Origin: Kangiella koreensis DSM 16069 | GTDB taxonomy: Bacteria; Pseudomonadota; Gammaproteobacteria; Enterobacterales; Kangiellaceae | NCBI RefSeq assembly: GCF_000024085.1 | Contig: NC_013166.1 | Span: forward strand, 1,736,001 to 1,800,000 | Reading direction: 5' to 3' | Length of the DNA stretch: 64,000 nucleotides | Shown here: piece after piece, positions 38,634-50,328 of the stretch | Layout of the letters: each line of letters opens with the position of its first letter | Numbering within the stretch: the stretch's first letter is position 1 | The notes under the pieces: model-generated | Seen by the model: only the letters and a program-made list of their open reading frames with translations | Told to the model about the DNA's origin: nothing | Databases searched by the model: none | Position numbers and translations under genes: made by a program

Positions 38634-39728
38634 CTAAACATTAAATAAATCTTTGTAAGCTCTGAATCGCAGATAGTGATCGCACAATACTAAAGCCGCC
38701 ATCGCTTCAACAATCGGTACAGCTCGTGGCAACACACAAGGATCGTGGCGCCCTCTGCCATGAAACACCGTTGCCTCACCTTCAAGGTTTACCGTTTCTT
38801 GCTCTTTAATGATAGTTGGGGTTGGTTTAAAGGCCACCCTGAACACAATCGGCATGCCATTGGAAATTCCGCCTAAGACTCCGCCTGAATTATTGGTTCG
38901 AGTTTTCACTTCGCCATCTTGATTAATAAAGACATCATTGTGAGTTGTGCCACTTAGCAAAGTCCCAGCAAAACCGGAACCAATTTCAAAAGCCTTTGAC
39001 GCATTGATCGCCAGCATGGATTTCGCCAAATCAGCTTCCAGTTTATCGAACACTGGCTCACCTAATCCCACAGGAACAGATTTAATTCGACATTCAACAA
39101 TACCACCCAGCGAATCACCGCTTTTGCGAGCTTGCTCAATCTTAGCAATCATCTGCTCAGCCAGTTTTAAATCAGGGCAACGCACAGGTGTCTGTTCAAT
39201 TAAGCTTGCATCCACCGCCTCAGAATCGAGTGTCATAGTCAAATCTTGTACACTTTTGACGTAAGCCACAATCTCGGTTCCAAGCGCCTGTTCAAGCACT
39301 TTACGCGCAATGGCTCCAGCTGCCACATGCCCAGCGGTAATCCGCGCCGAGCTACGGCCACCACCTGCTACATCACGTATACCGTATTTTTTCTGGTAGG
39401 TGTAATCTGCATGACTCGGCCTGAAAATGGACCCAAGCTCTGAATAGTCTTTACTGCGTTGATCCTGGTTGGGAATTAACAAGCTGATGGGCGTACCGGT
39501 AGTCATGCCATTAACGACACCAGACATAATCTGCACCTGATCCGACTCATCGCGGCGGGTGGTAATTGAGCTTTGCCCAGGACGTCGGCGATCAAGGAAA
39601 ACCTGTATATCCTCCTCAGACAGTTTCAAACCTGCTGGGCAGCCCTCAACGACAGCGCCAATCGCTTTGCCATGAGACTCACCCCAATTGGTCACTCTGA
39701 ATAAAGTTCCGAAACTATCGCCTGCCAT
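38634..39728 (-). CDS. aroC: Chorismate synthase
   Basis: Last enzyme of the shikimate pathway (364 aa): EPSP to chorismate with reduced [57 protein letters not shown] and [18 protein letters not shown] match the family. AGGAA lies before the ATG, 17 nt after aroA. It appears to be the final gene of the aroF-trp-aroA-aroC supraoperon, ending against the converging DUF2069 gene. Confidence 0.96.
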
Positions 39729-39745
39729 AAGGATTTCCTAATACT

Positions 39746-41074
39746 TTAATGTTCTGCTGAGACTGTCTCTGAAACTCTTTCTAAGACAAGTTCAGTCACC
39801 ATACCAATCTGTTCAAGATACTGCCAATAGTCTGGGAAGGACTTGGCAACTGCTTCCGATGACTCGATCGTCAGACCCTTTAACTTGATCCCTATTAAAG
39901 CCAGGCTCATAGCCAGACGGTGATCATGACAGCTGGAAACTTTGTCTGCTATTAGTTGTTTACCGCCACGAATGGTAATACTCGATTCATCATACTCACA
40001 ATCTGCGCCTAGCTTTTTCAGTTGCTCGCATAAATCGACAATTCGATTAGACTCTTTAAAAGCTAAATGGGCAATGTTAGTAATACGGGTTTCGCCTTGG
40101 GCAAAACAAGCCAGAGCGGCTAAGGTTGGCACCACATCCGGCATATTACCCATATCCACGTCGATGCCCTGCAGTGGTGAGTCATATTCAACCTTTAGAT
40201 CATCCTGCTTAAGGTAAACTTTGGCGCCCATACGTTCCAGAACTTGCGGGAACTTTGATTCGCCTTGCGGAGAATCAAAATGATAATTAAGAACAGTGCA
40301 ACTTGATTCAGCCAACAAGCCAGCGGCCAAAAAGTAACTGCTACTGACCACATCACCAGCAACATGAATATCTTTCGCAACTAAAGCTTGCTGACCGGGT
40401 ATAAAAAATTCACGGCAATTGATTCGCTTTACTTCCCCACCGAACAACTCTATAGCTCGCAAGGTTAATTCGACGTAACTTTCCGATACAGCGTCTGAGC
40501 TCAAATGAATTAAGGTATCTTTTTCAGCCTTTAAACAGGCAATCAAAAGACCACTCAAAAACTGACTACTACGTGAAGCATCCAACTCACAAGAGCCACC
40601 AGTGATTGGCCCTGAAATTTTAATTGGTAAAAAGCCCTTTTCACTCTCTATACTGACGCCAAGAGTTTCAAGGCTGGCAACACTTTCCTGCATCGGGCGT
40701 GACCGCATCTGCTGGCTTCCAGTAATCGTGATCTGGTGCCCGACTGAGGAATAAAACAGTCCTGTCAGAGCCGTAATAAATCGCGCTAAGGTTCCACTAT
40801 CATGACAATCAATAACGACGTCATCAGCCAGCTCAAAGCTTTCAATACCTTTAATCTCAACGCTGGTTTGGTCAAGCCACTCAACTTTAGCACCTAGCGC
40901 CTGAATAGCACCCAATGCCGCGAGTATATCGTCATTGCGGGGAACATTGCTAAGCCGGGTTGTTCCATCACTGATGGCGGCCAATACCACATAACGGTTG
41001 GCCAGATACTTACTACCGGGCAACCTTAATTCGAATGGTTTTATCGCACTTGAAACTATGATTCGGTCAGTCAA
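39746..41074 (-). CDS. aroA: 3-phosphoshikimate 1-carboxyvinyltransferase (EPSP synthase)
   Basis: Shikimate-pathway enzyme of 442 aa that adds PEP to shikimate-3-phosphate. LPGSKYLANRYVVLAAISDGTT is the N-terminal PEP/S3P loop. HDSGTLARFITAL (usually GNAGTAMR), SRSSQFLSGLL, MGNMPDVVPTLAALACFA and KESNRIVDLCEQLKKLGAD follow. The HDSGT form replaces the usual G-N-A-G-T glyphosate loop, so the class I sensitivity pattern is altered. The only start that keeps the N-terminus is TTG at 41074, with GAGAG rather far upstream. It sits 42 nt after yfcL. Confidence 0.93.
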   Translation of the reverse strand: MTDRIIVSSAIKPFELRLPGSKYLANRYVVLAAISDGTTRLSNVPRNDDILAALGAIQALGAKVEWLDQTSVEIKGIESFELADDVVIDCHDSGTLARFITALTGLFYSSVGHQITITGSQQMRSRPMQESVASLETLGVSIESEKGFLPIKISGPITGGSCELDASRSSQFLSGLLIACLKAEKDTLIHLSSDAVSESYVELTLRAIELFGGEVKRINCREFFIPGQQALVAKDIHVAGDVVSSSYFLAAGLLAESSCTVLNYHFDSPQGESKFPQVLERMGAKVYLKQDDLKVEYDSPLQGIDVDMGNMPDVVPTLAALACFAQGETRITNIAHLAFKESNRIVDLCEQLKKLGADCEYDESSITIRGGKQLIADKVSSCHDHRLAMSLALIGIKLKGLTIESSEAVAKSFPDYWQYLEQIGMVTELVLERVSETVSAEH

Positions 41075-41116
41075 AAGATATTGTCACTCTCTTAGTATTG
41101 GATAAACAAACCTAAT

Positions 41117-41365
41117 TTAATCTTGAGGTTGCAGCTCATCCAGTAATTCAGATAACAGCTCAACATCGCGATCGGCTAAGCCATCGGCTTCCACAGCGTC
41201 TTCAACAAACAACGCAAATTCAGCAAACCATTCATCATCGGATAAATCGTCGGCAGGTATCAAATCCACCATCGGTATCAGATACCCAATTAAAAACAAT
41301 TTCTCTTCTTCAACCTGCTGTTCCATTTCCAGCAGTTGTTGCTTGATTGTTTCTGCTATCGACAT
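41117..41365 (-). CDS. yfcL: YfcL-like small acidic protein
   Basis: Acidic protein of 82 aa, predicted largely helical. EEEKLFLIGYLIPMVDLI and EADGLADRDVELLSELLDEL line up with E. coli YfcL (ELFASGYL... and ...GELSPRDQALV). In E. coli yfcL also lies close to aroC, which supports the assignment. Function unknown. The ATG at 41365 lies inside the 3' end of trpA, in another frame, giving a 56-nt overlap. Confidence 0.65.
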   Translation of the reverse strand: MSIAETIKQQLLEMEQQVEEEKLFLIGYLIPMVDLIPADDLSDDEWFAEFALFVEDAVEADGLADRDVELLSELLDELQPQD

Positions 41366-42215
41366 AGTGTGAGCCTTTTTCAATTGATTCAGTCATGTTG
41401 AGTTCATGACGTGCATTATGAGCCGCGTTAGACATAGTCTTAGCGTATTCCGACACTAAATCTAACATTTTATCCGGCGTATTATAATGCTCATTGATCA
41501 AGTTAACTATGGCTGAGCCGGTAATAATTCCATCAACACCTGCTTGAGCAGCCTTTAACACATGCTCTGGCTTGGAAATACCAAAGCCCTGCACTAAAGG
41601 CGGTGCTCCTAACCGCCTTAGATTATCGATCAGTTCAGTTCCTGTTTCCTGCTGGCTGTTATCAGCACCTGTAATTCCTTTACGACTAAGCACATAGGTA
41701 TAACCCTGACTGTTGCTGGCGATAAGTTGCAAACTGGCCTGGCTGGCATCAGGAGGCGCAAGATAAACCGTTTCGATCTCATAGGTCTTGGCTGCTCCTG
41801 CAAATAAATTTCCCTCTTCAACAGGACAATCAGCAATCAGCACTGAGTCAACACCTGCTCTTTGAGCATCATGATAAAACTGCTCAATACCAGGGGCAAA
41901 GACCAGATTGGCATAAGTCAAAATCCCTATGGGTAAATCCGGGTATTTAGCTCGCACTTTAGCAATCAAATCAAAACCTCTCTGAACACTAAACCCATTG
42001 GCTAATGGCCTTAGACTCGCCGTTTGAATAACCGGACCATCGGCGACCGGATCAGAAAAGGCAAAACCCAGCTCCAGTGCATCAGCACCATTCTCTACTA
42101 GCCTATCGATGAGTTTTAAGGATAACGCTTCTGTTGGGTCCCCCAGCAGCATAAAGGGGATATAGGCCAATTTGTTATCGGCTTTTAATTGTTTAAATAA
42201 TTGTTGGTAACGCAT
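41310..42215 (-). CDS. trpA: Tryptophan synthase alpha chain with extended C-terminus
   Basis: Alpha subunit that cleaves indole-3-glycerol phosphate (301 aa; usual length about 268). The catalytic Glu is in DALELGFAFSDPVADGP, with the Asp in the same loop. VLIADCPVEE, YVLSRKGITGAD and QGFGISKPEHV are family blocks. The last 30 or so residues (from about NMTESIEKG) exceed the family length and read into yfcL in a second frame. The start at 42215 has GAGAG before it; the earlier in-frame TTG is unlikely. It follows trpB by 28 nt. Confidence 0.94.
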   Translation of the reverse strand: MRYQQLFKQLKADNKLAYIPFMLLGDPTEALSLKLIDRLVENGADALELGFAFSDPVADGPVIQTASLRPLANGFSVQRGFDLIAKVRAKYPDLPIGILTYANLVFAPGIEQFYHDAQRAGVDSVLIADCPVEEGNLFAGAAKTYEIETVYLAPPDASQASLQLIASNSQGYTYVLSRKGITGADNSQQETGTELIDNLRRLGAPPLVQGFGISKPEHVLKAAQAGVDGIITGSAIVNLINEHYNTPDKMLDLVSEYAKTMSNAAHNARHELNMTESIEKGSHYVDSRNNQATTAGNGTAG

Positions 42216-42243
42216 AGTCACTCTCTTTATCAAAATTGATGTG

Positions 42244-43455
42244 TTAGGCAGTCTCTTGCAAGATACTCATTACATGAGCTAAATCTTTATCGCCGCGCCC
42301 GGACAGGTTGACCAGAATATTGAGTGGCTCACTGGATTCAGCCGCTAACTTCTTGGCGTAGGCCAATGCGTGCGATGATTCAAGTGCCGGAATAATGCCT
42401 TCAGTTTTAGACAGTTCCTGAAAGGCTTTTAATGCTTCGTCATCAGTCACAGATACATATTCGGCGCGCCCTGATGTCATTAAGTGCACATGCTCAGGTC
42501 CGATGCCGGGATAATCGAGACCAGCAGAAACAGAGTGCGATTCTTGCACCTGTCCCTCGCCATCTTGCAATACATAAGTTCTTGAGCCATGCAAGATGCC
42601 CTCACGGCCTTTTAATAAGGTTGCGCCGTGTGCTTTGGTGTCGAGGCCCTTACCAGCTGGCTCAACACCAATTAATCGAACCTCCTCATCCTTAATGAAA
42701 TCGGCAAAGATACCAATCGCGTTAGAGCCTCCACCGACACAGGCTACTACTGCATCGGGTAATTGCCCGATTAATTGCATCATTTGCTGTTTGGCTTCTT
42801 CGCCAATAATTTTCTGAAAAGTGCGTACCATTTTAGGAAAGGGTGCTGGACCCGCTACCGTCCCTAATAAGTAGTGTGTGGTTTCGTAACTGGATGCCCA
42901 ATCACGTAAAGCTTCATTGATAGCATCCTTTAAGCTGGCACTACCATTATCAACTGGAATCACTTCGGCGCCCATAAGCTGCATTCTGAACACATTAGGA
43001 GCCTGGCGATCGCAATCCTTCTTACCCATATAGATGGTTGCCTTTAAACCCAGCAACGCACAAGCCAGTGCAGTTGCTACGCCATGCTGACCAGCGCCTG
43101 TTTCGGCAATGATTCGATGCTTGCCCATTTTTTTAGCCAACAAAGCCTGAGCCAAAACCTGATTGGTTTTATGAGCTCCGCCATGCAACAAATCTTCACG
43201 CTTAAGGAAAATTCGCGACTGATTAATGCGTGCATAAGAACTACACTCGGTCACTGGTGTTGGACGCCCGGCATATTCTTTAAGCAAGCGACTGAGTTCA
43301 GTTTGAAACTCATCATCAACCAAGGATGCTTCAAAAGCCTTATCCAGCTGTTGCAATGCAGGCATCAATAGTTGCGGGACAAACTGTCCTCCATACTGGC
43401 CAATATAGGTGCCATCAAACTCAAAGTTCGTAGCAGTGTTAATTGTTTGATTCAT
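42244..43455 (-). CDS. trpB: Tryptophan synthase beta chain
   Basis: PLP-dependent beta subunit (403 aa) joining indole and serine. The N-terminal [18 protein letters not shown], the Schiff-base Lys in [30 protein letters not shown] and [12 protein letters not shown] are standard. The start overlaps the trpCF stop by ATGA. Confidence 0.97.
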
Positions 43456-44912
43456 GATGAAATACCTCCAACAGCGACCGGGTTTAGATTATTATCCACC
43501 TCACGGTCTGCAGAATTAAATTGGTTACGACCAGACTGTGGTCGGGCAGCTCTGAAAAAGTATGCCAGCAAATCCTTACCTTTGACTCCAGGACTGGACT
43601 CAACCGAGCTGGACAGATCAACGTTGATGACACCTAGCTGTTTAAGATTTTGAATGTTCTCTGCGTTTACACCACCGGCAATTCGCAGTTTCTGGCTAAA
43701 TAATTGTGGATTCAGATTGCGTAGTAATGACCAATCAAAACTGACACCGGTTCCACCCCGTTGATTTTGTGTTGAATTGGTCACTTCTGTATCCAGCAAA
43801 ACTTCGTCATAGGTATCAAGTAAAGTCTTCAGTTCTTTTTCAAAAATCTCTGATGATATTTCAGGTCCAACATGAAAAACTTTGGATACTTTAATATCAG
43901 TAACTTGCTGCTTAATGGCTTGAGCAAAGTCTAAACTTTCATCACCATGTAGCTGTACGGCTTGCAGTCTGTATTGCTGAGCAGCAGACACAACCTCATC
44001 AATGGACTGATCTTGAAAAACTCCGATCAGAGGTTTTGAGGAAGTTATTATGTTGCTATCAACACAACGTTTTGAATTCGGCACGAAAATCACACCGACA
44101 CAACTGGCTGGAAGTTCTTGCAAGAGATCAGCATCAGATTGTTGCGTCACACCGCAAACTTTAATGTCGCCATATACCAGTTGCCGTGCCGCTAACTCCA
44201 AGTCATCTTCCTTCATCAGACTGGAACCTACCAAACAGGCATCTGAAAACTGAGAAAGGTCTAATACATCTTGGTGGGTATTAATACCAGATTCAGTGAC
44301 CACCAAACGGTCCGCAGGTATTTTTTTTGCGAGTGCCTGAGTGTGCTCGAAACTGGTTGATAAATCTTTGAGGTTTCGGTTGTTGATGCCAATAATCTTA
44401 GCTCCAAGCTTTATCGCTCGCTCCAGCTCTGCTTCTGTATGAACTTCGGTCAGCACATCCATGTTTAAACTTTCGGCCTGCTCCTGACAAATTGTATAGT
44501 CTTTATCATTAAGAACTGACAGCATTAACAAAACGGCATCAGCTCCAAAGTAACGCGCCTGACGAATTTGCTTTGGCGACAAGATGAAATCTTTGCACAG
44601 TAAAGGCTTATCGGTAAGCTTTCTTACTTTCTGTAGATTGGAAAAACTGCCACGAAAAAATCGCTCTTCAGTGAGTACTGAAATGGCATCTGCATATTGG
44701 TCATAAACTGGCACAATTTGGTCTAAATCAAACTTGGCACGAATTAGCCCTTTGGAAGGCGATGCTTTCTTACACTCCATAATAAAACCGTAATGTGGCT
44801 TACTGAGTGCATCATAAAAGCTTCGTTGACTAGGCTCTAAATCATGATAGTCAGCTGTGTTACCAATCACACTACGCTTATGTTCAAGGATAGTTTCTAA
44901 TACATTAAGCAT
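43452..44912 (-). CDS. trpCF: Fused indole-3-glycerol phosphate synthase / phosphoribosylanthranilate isomerase
   Basis: Bifunctional enzyme of 486 aa. Residues 1-250 form the TrpC barrel: [39 protein letters not shown] and [11 protein letters not shown]. Residues 252-455 form the TrpF barrel: [34 protein letters not shown] and [12 protein letters not shown]. The fusion order is that of enteric TrpC. A polar tail of about 30 residues after FFRAAR extends beyond the usual end. It overlaps trpD by 8 nt and trpB by 4 nt. Confidence 0.96.
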
Positions 44913-45912
44913 AGGAGGCCTCTTTTATCTTTTGTAATTGCTGATAGGCTTGACCACTTTTTAATAACTCCTTGGCCAGTTTTGTACCCGCCTTAAAATC
45001 ATCCGCAAGATTATTCAAAACAAGCAAAGCCCCACAATTGACAGCTACCATATCAATATGTGCATCACTGCCCTGACCTTTCAACAATTGTTTGGCAGCA
45101 GCAACATTATCTTCAACGTCGTTTGCCTGAATACTGGCAATACTGTGTCGACTAATTCCAAAGTTTTCTGGCGAAAGAGTGAACTCTTGGATCACTCCAT
45201 CATCAAGAGAAACAGCAAATGTACTATCATGCACCGCAATTTCATCCAACCCCGAACCATGGACCACCAATGCCTTTTTGGCACCGAGTATTTTTAGAAT
45301 CTCTGCAAAAGGTCGGCAATACTTTTTGTCATAGACTCCAAGTAATTGCACTTCGGGCAATGCTGGATTTGCCAATGGTCCTATCAGATTAAAAATGGTT
45401 CGTGTTTTAAGTGACTGTCTGATTGGCATCACATGCTTAACGCCGGGATGGTAGTCTGGCGCAAATAAAAAAGAAAAATTCACATCATCCAACAACTGCT
45501 TGCTCTGTTCCGGACTGACATGAATATTGATATCGAGCTGCTCCATCAGATCTGCAGAACCACACTTCGAAGAAACCGAGCGGTTTCCATGCTTAACTAT
45601 TTTGACGCCAGCCGTAGCAGCTAATATGCTAACAATGCTTGAAACATTAATCGTGTTCAGGCCATCACCACCGGTGCCACAGCAATCACTTACTGAAAAG
45701 TCACTCTGTGGAAACTTCACGGCTTCTTGACGCAGCGCATAAGCAGCTCCGGCAATTTCCTCGACTGACTCACCTTTAGTTTTTAAAGCTGCCAGCATTG
45801 CTGCAACCACAGGAGCTTCAACCCGCCCCTGTAGAACAGCTTGAAATGATTCTGTTGCCTGCAAGTAATTTAAACTTTCACCTTGATAGATTGTTTCAAG
45901 CAACTGCATCAT
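44905..45912 (-). CDS. trpD: Anthranilate phosphoribosyltransferase
   Basis: Transfers phosphoribose from PRPP to anthranilate (335 aa). The glycine loop is DCCGTGGDGLNTINVS, KHGNRSVSSKCGSADLMEQL binds PRPP/Mg, and HHPAM-like FLFAPDYHPGVKHVMPIRQSLKTRTIFNLIGPLANP follows. TrpD and TrpG are separate here, not fused as in E. coli. Two ATG codons in a row begin it, overlapping trpG by 14-17 nt. Confidence 0.96.
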   Translation of the reverse strand: MMQLLETIYQGESLNYLQATESFQAVLQGRVEAPVVAAMLAALKTKGESVEEIAGAAYALRQEAVKFPQSDFSVSDCCGTGGDGLNTINVSSIVSILAATAGVKIVKHGNRSVSSKCGSADLMEQLDINIHVSPEQSKQLLDDVNFSFLFAPDYHPGVKHVMPIRQSLKTRTIFNLIGPLANPALPEVQLLGVYDKKYCRPFAEILKILGAKKALVVHGSGLDEIAVHDSTFAVSLDDGVIQEFTLSPENFGISRHSIASIQANDVEDNVAAAKQLLKGQGSDAHIDMVAVNCGALLVLNNLADDFKAGTKLAKELLKSGQAYQQLQKIKEASYA

Positions 45913-46516
45913 GGCGAGCCTCCTTTACAGATTTGCCTGAGTGGCTTTCAACGGTAGTAATAAAGTTGCGTAGTAGCTTATAACCAGCAAAGCTCATAAT
46001 GCTTTCTGGATGGAACTGAACACCGAAAATAGGCAGCTCATTATGTTGTACGGCCATAATCTCACCCTGCTCTGATGTGGCCGTAATTAATAGCGACTCA
46101 GGTACGGTTGTTGCAACCAGTGAGTGATACCTTGCTACAGCAATACTTCCTTTTATGTCAGAAAACAATGTTGATTTCTCTTTTAATAAAAGCTTGGATA
46201 CTTTTCCATGTACCACTTGTTGTGCTTTTTCTACCACACCACCAAAAGCTTCAACAATTACCTGGTGCCCTAAGCAAACACCTAAAATTGGCTTCGTTTT
46301 TTGGAAGTCTTGAAGTAACTTCGCACAACAGCCAGCTTCGGACGGCTTGCCTGGACCCGGAGACAAAACAATACAGTCTGCTTTACTAGCCAGGTTAGAA
46401 ACATACCCATACTCAGCATCGTTACGCACTACGTTGACTTCAAACCCAAGTAACTGCAATTCATAGTCGAGGTTATAAATGAAGGAGTCGAAGTTATCGA
46501 TTAATAATGCTTTCAT
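45896..46516 (-). CDS. trpG: Anthranilate synthase component II (glutamine amidotransferase)
   Basis: Class I glutaminase subunit of 206 aa. LIDNFDSFIYNL is at the N-terminus. The nucleophile Cys lies in GVCLGHQVIVEAFGG and the catalytic His/Glu in FGVQFHPESIMS. It supplies ammonia to TrpE. PabA-type dual use is possible, but operon context favours Trp. The start overlaps trpE by ATGA. Confidence 0.95.
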   Translation of the reverse strand: MKALLIDNFDSFIYNLDYELQLLGFEVNVVRNDAEYGYVSNLASKADCIVLSPGPGKPSEAGCCAKLLQDFQKTKPILGVCLGHQVIVEAFGGVVEKAQQVVHGKVSKLLLKEKSTLFSDIKGSIAVARYHSLVATTVPESLLITATSEQGEIMAVQHNELPIFGVQFHPESIMSFAGYKLLRNFITTVESHSGKSVKEARHDAVA

Positions 46517-48144
46517 GCCGCACTCTCCTTACTCTTTTCTTTCAGGTTCTCATTTATGTCCTGCTCATTTATTTCCTGCTCAGCTAACTGGCATGCATTG
46601 AGAACCGCCTTGGCCTTATGAAAGGTTTCATTCGCTTCCAGTTCTGGTTTTGAGTCGTAAACAATTCCCGCACCAGCCGAAACTTTGGCGACCCCGTCAG
46701 CCACTTCAGCAGAGCGAATGATAATGGCGCTATCAAATTCTTGATTCGCATTGTAAATACTGACTGCTCCGCCATAATAACCACGCGGCTTTTGCTCTAA
46801 TTCTCGAATAATTTCCACCGCCTTGATTTTGGGTGCACCAGTTAAGGTTCCCATATTGGCGCATGCACGATAGGCATGCATGGGATTGATATCATCACGA
46901 AGCTCACCAATCACTTCCGAAACCATATGCATCACATTCGAATACTTCACAATACGTTTTAACTGTGTGACCTGACGACTACCGGCTTTAATAACTTTAG
47001 CTAAGTCATTGCGTGCCAGATCGACCAGCATCATATGTTCCGCCCCTTCCTTTTCATCACTGATAAGCTCAAATTCAGTTTTTGCATCCAGCTCAAAGTT
47101 TATTGCACCGCTTTCTGTAATGGCACGCTTACGGGTTCCTGCAATGGGGTACAGAGTAACTTTGCTGTTGTCGAAAACCTTCAGGGCACTTTCAGGACTA
47201 GAACCAAACAGCTGACTGTCCGCAAAATTAATGTAGTACATGTATGGACCTGGATTAGACTTCCTCAGTACTTGATAGGCTTTAAAAGCATCATCACACT
47301 CAGTAGAGAAAGTGCGCGACAAGACCACCTGAAAAGCATCGCCCTCAATAATGCGCTGTTTAATCTTCTCGACTTTTCCTGCAAATTGCTCATCCGTGAC
47401 ATCGATTTTAAAATCACTACTCTGTAATGGAGTAAAAGTATGGCTCATGGATGTTGCGATTAAGGATGGTGTTTTAGAAGAAGATAATAACTTTGACTCT
47501 ATCGAGTCTATAGCAACGCCCAACCGGACAGTATTAGTGGCATTGTCGCCAAAACCTTTAACAATGATTTTAGCGGACTGTGAGTCATCTTCCTGAATCA
47601 CCAACTGGTCAGCCAGATAAAACTTGAAGTCGGGTGTTGTCTTATTAAGTGATGGCAAGGCTTCATACTGATCAACAAGATCGAAACTCATGGCACCAAT
47701 CAAACAGGAGCTGACATTATCTGCTTTTTGGTTGCATTGAATCTGCTCGGTTATCAGAGTCAGCACATCTGCAATAGTTGGCTGAGTCAGGCGCTGACTT
47801 TCATAGAATCCATTGCCGTAGTTTCCTTCATTAAGCGTATAGGTTATTACCTCGCTGGATGCGTCCTGTGTAAAACCAGCTGGAACTCCATCAGACTTGG
47901 CAAGAGCTCTTATGAAACTTTTGCCATTATCATTGAGACTTTTGATGGTTACAGTACCATCAAGACCTTCTATTACAGCCGCCGCTGAAACCATACTAAT
48001 ACTGCGCTTACTCTTCTGAGTGCCAGGCTCAGCAGTCTCCAACAGCGCGGTGTGAGATGTACGACCGTTAGTCGTTAACAGGCCGAACACCTCGCAGGGC
48101 AATAAAGAAAGCGGCAGCTTCTTGGTTAGCGTATTAACTTGCAT
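46513..48144 (-). CDS. trpE: Anthranilate synthase component I
   Basis: Chorismate-utilising subunit of 543 aa. The feedback pocket motif LLES is replaced by TALLETAEPG near residue 33. The catalytic domain has SRTFSTECDDAFKAYQVLRKSNPGPYMYYINF, GSSPESALKV, PIAGTRKRA, DEKEGAEHMMLVDLARND and RACANMGTLTGAPKIKAVEII. The ATG at 48144 has AGAGGTG just upstream and overlaps aroF by 11 nt. The longer frame to 48192 would use TTG. Confidence 0.95.
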   Translation of the reverse strand: MQVNTLTKKLPLSLLPCEVFGLLTTNGRTSHTALLETAEPGTQKSKRSISMVSAAAVIEGLDGTVTIKSLNDNGKSFIRALAKSDGVPAGFTQDASSEVITYTLNEGNYGNGFYESQRLTQPTIADVLTLITEQIQCNQKADNVSSCLIGAMSFDLVDQYEALPSLNKTTPDFKFYLADQLVIQEDDSQSAKIIVKGFGDNATNTVRLGVAIDSIESKLLSSSKTPSLIATSMSHTFTPLQSSDFKIDVTDEQFAGKVEKIKQRIIEGDAFQVVLSRTFSTECDDAFKAYQVLRKSNPGPYMYYINFADSQLFGSSPESALKVFDNSKVTLYPIAGTRKRAITESGAINFELDAKTEFELISDEKEGAEHMMLVDLARNDLAKVIKAGSRQVTQLKRIVKYSNVMHMVSEVIGELRDDINPMHAYRACANMGTLTGAPKIKAVEIIRELEQKPRGYYGGAVSIYNANQEFDSAIIIRSAEVADGVAKVSAGAGIVYDSKPELEANETFHKAKAVLNACQLAEQEINEQDINENLKEKSKESAA

Positions 48145-49168
48145 AAGCCACCTCTGCCAAAGTTCTGCCACTTGCTGTGACAAAAGGTGCAAGTTGCTGC
48201 ATTAAAGTATGGAAGTCTTGAGGGGAAAGCGCTTGAGCGGCATCCGATACCGATTCTTTAGGGCTTCTATGGCACTCGATAATGACACCATCAGCACCAC
48301 AGGCCACCGCAGCTTTGGCCATCGGAGACACCAGCGTGCGAACTCCGGTACCGTGTGATGGATCCACAATCACCGGTAAGTGGCTGCGCTCTTTAATAAA
48401 CGCAACTGCATTTAAATCAAGCGTGTTACGGGTGGCAGTTTCAAAAGTCCTGATGCCGCGCTCGCAAATCATGACATTGGGATTCCCGCTGGCAACAATA
48501 TATTCGGCAGCAAGCAATAACTCTTCAATCGTTGCCGATAAACCACGCTTAAGCAATACAGGCTTTTGGGTTTCACCCACTGCTTTAAGCAACGTGTAAT
48601 TTTGCATATTACGAGCGCCAATTTGAATCGCAGAAATATAACGCGCGACGTCGTCCAGATCGTTAACGTCCATGAGCTCTGTAATGGTGTCTAAACCTGT
48701 TTCCTTACCCACCTGATGCATGATTTTTAAACCTTCAACACCTAACCCCTGAAAAGAGTAAGGGCTAGTGCGCGGCTTAAAGGCACCGCCGCGTAACACT
48801 GTTGCGCCCGCCTGTTTAACGTAACGCGCGGTTTCTAAAAGCTGATCCTCGCTCTCAATGGCACACGGGCCGGCCATGATGGTAAATTGCTCAGACCCTA
48901 CCGGCGTGTTGCCAACCTGTACAACGGTATCCTGGGCATAAATTTCACGGCTAACCAACTTGTATTTACTCAACACAGGCTTAACCAAATCAACCTGCGG
49001 CAGATTTTCCAGGTGTAGCGACTCTAAAACACGTTCATCACCTAAAGCACCGATGACAGTGCGTTCACTGCCCGGCATATGTAGCGGCTTAAGACCTGCA
49101 GCGTCAATTTTTTGCAATATTTCCTGCGCATCTTGCTCTGATGCATCGTGTCGAAGAATAATAATCAT
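48134..49168 (-). CDS. aroF: DAHP synthase, type I-beta with N-terminal ferredoxin-like regulatory domain
   Basis: First shikimate-pathway enzyme, joining PEP and erythrose-4-phosphate (344 aa). Residues 1-70 form the small FL/ACT-like domain found in Thermotoga and Bacillus-type I-beta enzymes ([21 protein letters not shown]). The barrel has [67 protein letters not shown] and DPSHGTG. This is not the AroF/G/H I-alpha type of enterics. As first gene of the trp supraoperon it would be expressed according to Trp-tRNA charging. AAGGA lies 8 nt before the ATG. Confidence 0.94.
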
Positions 49169-49240
49169 AGTGTGTTCCTTATCATTAAATTTAAAATTTT
49201 TGTAACTTAATTAGTTAGTAAATATAAAACTGTCAGACAT

Positions 49241-49268
49241 AAAAAAAGCCCGCACAATGGCGGGCTTT
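49241..49268 (-). terminator. trp attenuator terminator 2 (proximal to aroF)
   Basis: On the minus strand AAAGCCCGC - 6-nt loop - GCGGGCTTT, followed by four more T. The 5' arm with its next base can pair with GGGCGGGG next to the leader 2 stop codon, giving the alternative antiterminator. Confidence 0.9.
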
Positions 49269-49297
49269 ATCGTCTTTTCTCTAGACAATACCCCGCC

Positions 49298-49357
49298 CTA
49301 CTGGAACCACCACCAGCTTGCAGTTAGGAATGTGTGTTGCTGAGTATCTATTGTCAT
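49298..49357 (-). CDS. trp leader peptide 2
   Basis: A 19-codon open frame, MTIDTQQHTFLTASWWWFQ, with TGG TGG TGG at codons 15-17 and a TAG stop abutting the antiterminator segment. AAGAGA about 10 nt upstream is a modest ribosome-binding site. Stalling at the Trp codons would free the downstream GGGCGGGG to block terminator 2. Confidence 0.85.
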   Translation of the reverse strand: MTIDTQQHTFLTASWWWFQ

Positions 49358-49416
49358 GATTTGAATTCTCTTAATTTCTATTAGCTCAAAATTACTTGGT
49401 TCTTTTACACAGGCAT

Positions 49417-49443
49417 AAAAAAAGCCCGCTTGTGCGGGCTTTT
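49417..49443 (-). terminator. trp attenuator terminator 1 (distal)
   Basis: On the minus strand AAAAGCCCGC - ACAA - GCGGGCTTTT, then three further T: a 10-bp perfect stem with a tetraloop and a seven-T tail. The upstream GCGGGCCTTTT can pair with the 5' arm (one bulged C) as antiterminator. Confidence 0.92.
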
Positions 49444-49493
49444 AAAATCTTTGTCTTGTATCAATATCTTACAAACAATAAAAGGCCCGCTAC

Positions 49494-49541
49494 TTAAGCA
49501 ACGTGCCACCACCAAATGTTTTGTGCGATATTCATATTCAT
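49494..49541 (-). CDS. trp leader peptide 1
   Basis: A 15-codon open frame, MNMNIAQNIWWWHVA, with three consecutive TGG codons at 10-12 and a TAA stop, followed 3 nt later by the antiterminator. No Shine-Dalgarno sequence is present. The promoter position predicts that the RNA begins at or next to the ATG. Confidence 0.88.
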   Translation of the reverse strand: MNMNIAQNIWWWHVA

Positions 49542-49548
49542 GTGTTGC

Positions 49549-49577
49549 AATCTAAACCATCTTTTTTATTCGGTCAA
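49549..49577 (-). promoter_or_regulatory. Promoter of the aro-trp supraoperon
   Basis: Minus strand: -35 TTGACC (49572-49577), 17-nt spacer, -10 TAGATT (49549-49554), then 7 nt to the A of leader peptide 1. No TrpR-like palindrome overlaps it. Confidence 0.65.
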
Positions 49578-49617
49578 CTACTTTCTGGTTGAATATACTT
49601 AAATAGAATAAGAACAA

Positions 49618-50328
49618 CTACTTACCCTTAGCGAACTTATCAACCTGGGACTCTGTCTTTAATCGTGACTTAGGCAACTGAGATGCTAAGCGCTCAATAT
49701 TCGAGGTTAGTGACCAAATCTCCAGTTTAGCGGCTGGGTCATGCCATTCAGCTACCGTTAGCCCTTCAGCGAAGGAATCAAGGTAAGCAACCCGGTTACC
49801 CAATTTTGTCGGCAAATCATCAACCCCAAGCTCCTGTTTGGCATTAGCAACCACATTATCGGCAGAATTAGTCCTAACGCGATAACGATTCCAGCAAATA
49901 CGCGCTTCTAGATTTGAATTAAGCTGTTTAGCCTCGTCAACAATTTCAGCTAAATGCTTGGTGGACCAAACTTCTATCGGAGATGGACTTAAAGGAATAA
50001 GGGCAACATCAGATAATAGGACAACCGCTCTTGTTAGATTGGTAATTCTTGGGTGGCCATCAATCAGAATATAGTCATATAAGTCAGTATTTTCACGAAC
50101 CTGCTTCTGCAAATGAGCAAGATTCTTTGCTGAAACAATATCCATATTTTCAATCAGATACTGTTCGTCGCGAACTCGGTACCAAGTTTCAAGTGAGCTT
50201 TGCGGATGATCGGTATCGATCATCAGAACCTTACTTTTATCCGATAAAGTAGAGGCAATATTGGCACATAAAGTGGTTTTGCCTGCCCCACCTTTCATTT
50301 GAACAAAACTAATGACTTTTGCGCGCAC
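49618..50328 (-). CDS. Orphan ParA/MinD-type ATPase
   Basis: Deviant-Walker ATPase of 236 aa. K12-GGAGKTT is the P-loop with the signature lysine, DTDHPQSS is the A' motif (usually DxDPQ) and ILIDGHPRIT stands where DTPP is normal. GTG start with GGGGA upstream. No ParB, MinE or parS-like repeat adjoins it. It follows pilY1 by 89 nt in the same direction and ends 77 nt before leader peptide 1. A role in placing pili or another complex is conceivable by analogy with FlhG or other orphan ParA proteins, but this is speculation. Confidence 0.85.
   Translation of the reverse strand: MRAKVISFVQMKGGAGKTTLCANIASTLSDKSKVLMIDTDHPQSSLETWYRVRDEQYLIENMDIVSAKNLAHLQKQVRENTDLYDYILIDGHPRITNLTRAVVLLSDVALIPLSPSPIEVWSTKHLAEIVDEAKQLNSNLEARICWNRYRVRTNSADNVVANAKQELGVDDLPTKLGNRVAYLDSFAEGLTVAEWHDPAAKLEIWSLTSNIERLASQLPKSRLKTESQVDKFAKGK

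What the first reader, a model, noticed from the sequence alone, without database searches (positions are those of the whole stretch)
49169..49617. Two complete trp attenuators in series before one operon
The minus-strand leader encodes two separate short peptides, MNMNIAQNIWWWHVA and MTIDTQQHTFLTASWWWFQ. Each has three consecutive UGG codons and is followed by its own antiterminator and GC-rich terminator. The string GCGGGCTTTTTTTATG ends both terminators, pointing to duplication, while the peptides have diverged apart from WWW. Serial attenuators would multiply read-through probabilities and sharpen the response to charged tRNA-Trp. Classic trp leaders have a single unit; I know of no described tandem version, but I could not search.
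Basis: partly seen in the sequence, partly recalled or inferred. Interest (0 to 1): 0.92.

Follow-up and report, generated by a model that had tools for sequence, protein, structure and literature searches.

The report
Two tryptophan attenuators in series
In the marine bacterium Kangiella and some of its relatives, the genes for making tryptophan sit behind two tryptophan-sensing RNA switches in a row instead of the textbook single one, possibly making up for a missing repressor protein.

Summary
The window lies in Kangiella koreensis (genome length matches exactly). Its operon DAHP synthase-trpEGD-trpCF-trpB-trpA is preceded on the minus strand by two short ORFs, each with three Trp codons, its own predicted antiterminator and its own terminator. 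A ribosome on the first Trp codon leaves a -15.7 kcal/mol antiterminator in both units; a ribosome at the stop codon removes most or all of it.

The arrangement is conserved: 20 of 20 Kangiella genomes, 34 of 38 readable genomes of the family, and 10 genomes of four other families. A good promoter match lies just upstream of unit 1 in 39 of 44, of unit 2 in 2 of 42. Unit 1 is probably leaderless.

No tandem-bearing genome examined has the TrpR repressor; all 13 TrpR-bearing genomes with the same operon have one attenuator. This fits a second attenuator replacing the repressor, but offers only 3-4 independent contrasts, and repressor loss alone does not bring tandems.

Eight open-access searches listed no tandem trp leader-peptide attenuator; tandem T-boxes and the two-signal mgtCBR leader are nearest. 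New variant of a known kind; nothing was tested in cells.

The parts
49549..49577 (-). Promoter-like site of the leader: TTGACC, 17 nt, TAGATT; the -10 hexamer ends 7 nt before the unit 1 AUG, so the transcript probably starts at or next to that AUG
   Evidence: the best site lies 6-8 nt from the AUG in 34 of 44 unit 1s by script, 35 with L018 read by eye. In the plain scan such sites were no more frequent than in shuffles (2 found, 2.7 expected); the support is conservation
49494..49541 (-). Unit 1 leader peptide MNMNIAQNIWWWHVA, UGG run at 49514-49506
   Evidence: tandem layout with such an ORF in 44 of 69 readable leaders
49484..49507 (-). Unit 1 protector hairpin 1:2 (predicted -11.8 kcal/mol)
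49479..49490 (-). Unit 1 region 2 (GCGGGCCTTTTA), pairs with the terminator 5' arm as the antiterminator
   Evidence: -15.7 kcal/mol with the ribosome at the first UGG, -4.1 at the stop; six GC-core pairs kept in 20 of 20 Kangiella, the flanking A-U pairs in only 6 to 16 of 20
49420..49443 (-). Unit 1 intrinsic terminator (10 bp, -16.0 kcal/mol) followed by a T run
49298..49357 (-). Unit 2 leader peptide MTIDTQQHTFLTASWWWFQ, UGG run at 49315-49307, weak SD-like AAGAGA upstream
   Evidence: SD match 4 of 6 here, 2 to 4 of 6 in the 20 Kangiella
49283..49297 (-). Unit 2 region 2 (GGCGGGGTATTGTCT), pairs with 49275-49260 as the antiterminator
   Evidence: -15.7 kcal/mol with the ribosome at the first UGG, 0.0 at the stop
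49245..49268 (-). Unit 2 intrinsic terminator (9 bp, -14.6 kcal/mol) followed by a T run
   Evidence: one varying pair stays paired in the genus, GC 8, GU 7, AU 5
48134..49168 (-). First structural gene: DAHP synthase (TIGR01361 type)
   Evidence: the genome also has a class I aroFGH-type and a class II DAHP synthase
41310..48192 (-). trpE, trpG, trpD, trpCF, trpB, trpA
   Evidence: trpE start codon uncertain
38634..41074 (-). aroA and aroC, possibly the end of the same operon; terminator-like site at 38607-38580
   Evidence: (terminator-like and promoter-like sites there no more frequent than in shuffles)

Best explanation
Both units are ribosome-mediated trp attenuators acting one after the other on a single transcript that starts at unit 1. 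When charged tRNA-Trp is plentiful, the ribosome reaches each stop codon, covers region 2 and lets the terminator form. When it is scarce, the ribosome stalls at UGG, region 2 pairs with region 3 and RNA polymerase passes. Polymerase must pass both decision points to reach the DAHP synthase and trp genes. If the two decisions are independent, basal read-through and dynamic range multiply (for example 10% becomes 1%). I infer that this gives an operon without the TrpR repressor the low basal expression and wide range that E. coli gets from repressor plus one attenuator. Shown: anatomy, predicted alternative structures, conservation, a promoter match before unit 1 only, no TrpR match. Inferred: Trp response, single transcript, independence, multiplication, replacement of TrpR.
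For: Stall versus stop geometry in the window and across 109 units: stalling beats stopping by more than 3 kcal/mol in 43 of 43 unit 1s, 41 of 42 unit 2s and 24 of 24 single units. Dinucleotide-shuffle control of the stalled fold: P<=0.05 in 37 of 43, 27 of 42 and 21 of 24. Region 2 carries the exact complement of the region 3 core in 75 of 99 units with CCCGC, in 5 of 9 with CCCGT and in 1 of 1 with CCCAC. Tandem layout in 44 of 69 readable leaders, five families. Promoter score >=8 within 70 nt upstream of unit 1 in 39 of 44, of unit 2 in 2 of 42. TrpR over cut-off in 0 of 40 genomes of the family and 0 of the 10 tandem genomes outside it, E. coli control positive. [quoted passage not shown]
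Against: No expression data. Unit 2 folds no better than shuffles as a whole (z -0.85, 41 of 200), and its 1:2 hairpin is weak, so without translation its antiterminator may form. Pairing of the terminator arm alone beats shuffles at P<=0.05 in only 13 of 43, 11 of 42 and 2 of 24 units. Region 2 lacks the exact complement in 28 of 109 units, and 5 CCCGC units have an unmatched ACGGG there. Of the 44, L021 and L039 have only one Trp codon in unit 2, and L006 (unit 1) and L032 (unit 2) have imperfect terminators the script missed. TrpR link: 3-4 independent contrasts, sign test p=1. TrpR-less genomes with one attenuator before trpE are frequent in my sample (f20 6 of 6, f7 9 of 10, f9 1 of 1), and five TrpR-less DAHPS leaders have one unit or less.
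Confidence: 0.82

Rival explanations
1. Only one unit controls the operon; the other is a relic or a constitutive terminator.
For: Whole-fold z-score of unit 2 is weak; the second unit is reduced to a single Trp codon in L021 and L039, its place is taken by a terminator-less Trp-rich ORF in f7 and f25, and one unit is missing in four f1 genomes.
Against: In Kangiella both units keep two or more UGG codons and the GC cores: 2:3 and 3:4 of unit 1 and 3:4 of unit 2 in 20 of 20 species, 2:3 of unit 2 in 12 or 13 of the 13 counted (the other 7 species have another unit 2 layout). Stall geometry holds in 41 of 42 unit 2s.
Confidence: 0.1
2. The second unit is read mainly as a translation-initiation sensor, or the terminated unit 1 RNA and peptide act in trans, like rnTrpL/peTrpL of Sinorhizobium meliloti.
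For: Unit 1 is predicted leaderless, like S. meliloti trpL, whose operon is also not under repression (PMC7298713 passages). Unit 2 needs new initiation, has a weak SD match and lacks a strong protector hairpin.
Against: No trans target was looked for. Conservation of the unit 1 C-terminus is also explained by RNA pairing.
Confidence: 0.1
3. The two units belong to separate transcripts with their own promoters.
For: Promoter-like sites of score 8 before unit 2 in 2 of 42 genomes.
Against: None with score >=8 in the other 40; a conserved promoter match precedes unit 1.
Confidence: 0.03
4. Chance: Trp codons near ordinary terminators.
For: The shared 16-mer also ends a terminator after an unrelated gene.
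Against: Random windows; conservation over five families.
Confidence: 0.01

Closest known systems
Classical trp attenuator of Escherichia coli (Rfam RF00513)
   Same: Short ORF with consecutive Trp codons; regions 1:2, 2:3, 3:4; terminator with U run ahead of trp genes
   Different: One unit and TrpR in E. coli (PMC1183508 section 13; its SD-led leader is recalled); here two units, DAHP synthase first, no TrpR, unit 1 probably leaderless; both units score under the Rfam gathering value
Tandem T-box riboswitches on trp operons of Bacillota (PMC12452182, passages)
   Same: Two tRNA-Trp sensing switches in a row before trp genes, same signal twice
   Different: T-boxes bind tRNA directly without translation (recalled and PMC7583486 abstract start); here ribosomes on leader peptides. 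No T-box match here
Tandem attenuators of Salmonella mgtCBR (PMC3641672, abstract and outline)
   Same: Two short ORFs with attenuation in one leader
   Different: Two different signals (ATP and proline), described there as a singular example; here, by codon content, one signal twice
Leaderless trpL of Sinorhizobium meliloti (PMC7298713, passages)
   Same: RNA starts at the AUG of the Trp leader ORF; no repression of initiation
   Different: No tandem described in the passages seen; trpE(G) only
Two leader peptides of ermB (PMC8274638, listing and start of abstract)
   Same: Two leader peptides before one gene
   Different: Translational attenuation by an antibiotic

Membership tests
Ribosome-mediated trp attenuator (general mechanism) | Short ORF with a run of Trp codons ahead of trp genes | tested here: met
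   both units
Ribosome-mediated trp attenuator (general mechanism) | Mutually exclusive antiterminator and terminator sharing region 3 | tested here: met
   predicted only:
Ribosome-mediated trp attenuator (general mechanism) | Ribosome at Trp codons frees region 2, ribosome at stop covers it | tested here: met
   in silico with an assumed 12-nt mask; 43 of 43 unit 1s and 41 of 42 unit 2s
Ribosome-mediated trp attenuator (general mechanism) | Read-through depends on charged tRNA-Trp | not testable with these tools
   needs RNA or reporter measurements
Rfam RF00513 Trp_leader | Covariance-model score at or above gathering (41) | tested here: not met
   29.8 and 23.2 bits; looks like a trp leader but is not a member by Rfam's score
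Tandem T-box | T-box RNA match | tested here: not met
   none among the 28 matches up to E 1
mgtCBR-type tandem attenuators | Two units responding to different signals | tested here: not met
   by codon content only: both units carry Trp codons
Tandem attenuators on one transcript | Single start upstream of both units | tested here: inconclusive
   promoter scan only: 39 of 44 upstream of unit 1 against 2 of 42 before unit 2

The most novel reading that the evidence does not exclude
Serial leader-peptide attenuation is an ancient third design for attenuation-only control: a leaderless first switch synchronised with transcription start and an independently initiated second switch together replace the TrpR repressor. 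Lineages that keep TrpR with this operon carry one unit, and other lineages (f7, f25, f11, f12) keep a second Trp-rich ORF without its terminator, perhaps as a translational switch.
Probability: 0.35. Interest if true: 0.78.

Novelty: new variant of a known kind. Interest (0 to 1): 0.62.

Why it matters
The trp attenuator is the textbook case of RNA-based control. A natural, conserved two-stage version allows a direct test of whether attenuators in series multiply range and sensitivity, and whether attenuation alone can replace a repressor. PMC1183508 section 13 puts the leak of the E. coli trp attenuator at excess Trp at 10-15% and suggests two other ways of lowering such a leak. A recent E. 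[quoted passage not shown] Kangiella may show how evolution met that limit.

Tried and rejected
Duplication of one unit within the genome: rejected as a recent event. Over 41 genomes a genome's own unit 1/unit 2 pair scores 48.8 against 43.2 for unrelated pairs, mean rank 0.58, and the shared 16-mer also ends an unrelated terminator.

Fusion of a DAHPS-borne leader with a trpE-borne leader as the origin of the tandem: single Vibrionaceae units lean only slightly and not uniformly to unit 2, so undecided. f7 and f25 attenuators are unit-1-like by mean score, and G025 is unit-2-like.

TrpR absence as a sufficient cause: rejected (f20, f7 and f9 have single attenuators without TrpR). TrpR absence as a correlate: kept, but the tree gives only 3-4 independent pairs (a quick tree with 21 open forks of 69 inner branches and several long branches).

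Tandem trp leaders outside the order: of 29 loci from 28 other genomes of the class (369 drawn from a larger group, flanks of up to 1.5 kb), 5 have trpE downstream, each with one W-rich ORF by script. In 39 regions upstream of trpE, from genomes of the order without a DAHPS hit at 1e-100, I saw no second complete unit. That sample was hand-picked from the hits listed, 39 of 366 genomes; in G201 and the six f11 genomes the script found no terminator after the Trp ORF, and G261 has an unusual leader.

Rows dropped: G062 and G048 (leader cut by the contig end) and G031 (gene at the contig end, not fetched). L041 and L042 repeat genomes already counted. Of the 80 loci I read the leaders of L041-L053 and L061; L053, L054, L056 and L061 served as outgroups in the tree; the rest were not examined. 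Start codons of several leader ORFs (for example L005, L014, L026, L047, L049, L123) were chosen by eye among in-frame ATGs, which favours the 6-8 nt spacing in cases such as L005 and L014.

Literature: PMC2387123 (review of trp operon evolution) is not held, and the 2004 comparative survey of attenuators was seen only as a reference, so a mention of tandem leaders in closed papers cannot be excluded. In most listed papers I saw only the listing.

Full report
Identity. The window lies in a 2,852,073-base single-contig genome, the length published for Kangiella koreensis SW-125T (PMC3035244, passages). The two nearest named loci are Kangiella contigs.

Anatomy. On the minus strand a TTGACC-17-TAGATT site (49577-49549) is followed 7 nt later by the AUG of unit 1 (ORF 49541-49494), its terminator (49443-49420), unit 2 (ORF 49357-49298), its terminator (49268-49245) and DAHP synthase at 49168. 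Then come trpE, trpG, trpD, trpCF, trpB, trpA, and further on aroA and aroC. The genome holds a class I aroFGH-type and a class II DAHP synthase besides this one; the third PF00793 hit is KDO8P synthase. The one here is therefore likely a Trp-branch isozyme (inference).

Mechanism in silico. With a ribosome's A site at the first UGG and 12 nt masked downstream, the 2:3 antiterminator is -15.7 kcal/mol in both units. With the ribosome at the stop it is -4.1 (unit 1) and 0.0 (unit 2); the terminators are -16.0 and -14.6. Once region 4 exists, the antiterminator still wins in unit 1 with the ribosome at the first UGG, but the terminator fold wins at its other positions and throughout unit 2, so timing has to favour the antiterminator, as is assumed for E. 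coli. Unit 1 also has a strong 1:2 hairpin (-11.8). Unit 2 does not, so an untranslated unit 2 may read through, making its basal level depend on initiation (inference). Whole-unit folds: unit 1 z -3.85 (0 of 200 shuffles as good), unit 2 z -0.85 (41 of 200).

Conservation. I read the region upstream of this DAHP synthase in 71 genomes: 30 loci, 10, 10 named Vibrionaceae, and 21 (listed). Two are cut by contig ends (G062, G048), leaving 69. trpE follows in 67 of the 68 that could be checked (not found for G058 of f23, not checked for G029). Tandem layout: 44 (34 in the Kangiella family f1, 1 in f4, 1 in f13, 3 in f14, 5 in f15). Both units were scored in 41. The other three are L006 (unit 1 terminator with a G-U pair), L032 (unit 2 terminator imperfect) and L021 (unit 2 ORF with one Trp codon), judged by eye; L039, counted among the 41, also has one Trp codon in unit 2. 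One attenuator plus a second Trp-rich ORF without terminator: 7 (f7 5, f25 2). Single: 18 (10 Vibrionaceae, 3 f6, 1 f23, 4 f1). Of the last two groups, L036 (f23) has one Trp codon in a Phe/Tyr-rich peptide, and L040 has a stop codon before its Trp codons. Within the genus the tandem is in 20 of 20. Over 109 units the stalled state beats the stop state by more than 3 kcal/mol in 43 of 43 unit 1s, 41 of 42 unit 2s and 24 of 24 singles. Against dinucleotide shuffles the stalled fold has P<=0.05 in 37, 27 and 21 of these; pairing of the terminator arm alone reaches that in only 13, 11 and 2. In the genus the GC cores of 2:3 and 3:4 hardly vary, apart from one pair in unit 2 that stays paired as GC 8, GU 7, AU 5; several outer 2:3 pairs are not kept. 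Across families region 2 holds the exact complement of the region 3 core in 75 of 99 units with CCCGC, 5 of 9 with CCCGT and 1 of 1 with CCCAC; 5 CCCGC units have an unmatched ACGGG. The match of regions 3 and 4 in that count follows from how terminators were found, so only region 2 is informative.

One transcript. A promoter match scoring >=8 lies within 70 nt upstream of unit 1 in 39 of 44 genomes and of unit 2 in 2 of 42. The best site lies 6-8 nt from the unit 1 AUG in 34 of 44 (35 with L018 by eye), predicting a leaderless first ORF; some start codons were chosen by eye. Among 24 single units the best site lies so close in 1. S. meliloti trpL is a precedent for a leaderless Trp leader (PMC7298713 passages).

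TrpR. PF01371 over its cut-off: 0 of 40 genomes of f1 (37, 3; G014 has a sub-threshold hit of 25.1 bits) and 0 in the f4, f7, f13, f14, f15, f23 and f25 genomes. It is present in 3 of 3 f6 genomes and in 10 of 10 Vibrionaceae. So the 13 TrpR-bearing genomes with this operon are all single, and the 56 without TrpR are 44 tandem, 7 with a second Trp-rich ORF, and 5 single (4 without G058, whose trpE was not found). On the DAHPS tree the tandem lies on several deep branches, so it may be ancestral with later reductions, but support there is weak, only 3-4 independent pairs exist and the association cannot be tested. In 39 hand-picked regions upstream of trpE (from 366 genomes with a hit), TrpR-less f20 (6 of 6), f7 (9 of 10) and f9 (1 of 1) have one attenuator (in G201 of f7 the terminator was not recognised). 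f12 (4 of 4) and f25 (6 of 6), both without TrpR over cut-off, and f11 (6 of 6, 3 with TrpR) have a second short Trp-rich ORF without a recognised terminator; in f11 none was recognised after the first ORF either. Repressor loss is therefore not sufficient.

Comparison with the known. Open-access searches listed no tandem trp leader-peptide attenuator. Passages of the premature-terminator survey PMC2965389 mention a tandem terminator only for the rimP leader. Tandem T-boxes before trp operons are described in Bacillota (PMC12452182 passages), with modes of action called unknown (PMC7583486 passages), and mgtCBR is a tandem with two signals (PMC3641672 abstract). PMC1183508 section 13 states that E. 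coli trp combines a repressor range of about 70 with about 10-fold attenuation, needs 10-15% basal read-through, and that the attenuation-only his operon is supposed to have lower leak. Two units of 10% would give 1% if independent (arithmetic).

Verdict. A real, conserved tandem of predicted ribosome-mediated trp attenuators; a new variant of a known kind. The most interesting inference, replacement of TrpR, is plausible but untested.

Noticed in passing
L124-L126, L128, L135 (f7) and L133-L134 (f25), directly upstream of DAHP synthase: One unit-1-like attenuator followed by a second Trp-rich ORF (f7: MLTTKVKSWFIWWLQPIYAG or close to it in all five genomes, four genera) ending 30-33 nt before the gene in f7 and 33 and 56 nt in f25, with no terminator; possibly a translational Trp switch or a relic of unit 2.
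   Followed up: partly
L162-L165 (f12), L182-L187 (f25), L188-L193 (f11), upstream of trpE: Trp leader followed by a second short ORF ending in WRW-type motifs before trpE, without a recognised terminator; present in f11 genomes with and without TrpR.
   Followed up: no
window 49577-49541: Unit 1 predicted leaderless: -10 hexamer 7 nt before AUG; best site 6-8 nt away in 34 of 44 unit 1s, unlike single units (1 of 24).
   Followed up: yes
L006, L007, L011, L015, L016, L017, L020 (unit 2): In these Kangiella species the unit 2 ORF runs on into or through region 2 (for example ...WWLWLRRAFVREFFI), like the late-stop design suggested to lower basal read-through (PMC1183508 section 13).
   Followed up: partly
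window 38634-41309: aroA and aroC follow trpA after a short ORF, with a terminator-like site only after aroC (38607-38580), suggesting that common-pathway genes may also be under the tandem attenuator.
   Followed up: partly
L031, L033: Copies of a CCAGGGATGG-type repeat lie between the attenuator and DAHP synthase.
   Followed up: no
window 49618-50328: A ParA-family ATPase gene (NF041546, just under cut-off) precedes the leader in all 20 Kangiella loci and in G020.
   Followed up: no
L040 (G029) leader: Single unit whose ORF has an in-frame stop before the Trp codons; possibly a decayed leader or a draft error.
   Followed up: no
L036 (G058, f23) leader: Single leader peptide MNLSHQYFYFFGWFCSHSGREGMVCG with one Trp and several Phe/Tyr codons before DAHP synthase, and no trpE found downstream; perhaps tuned to Phe/Tyr instead.
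   Followed up: no
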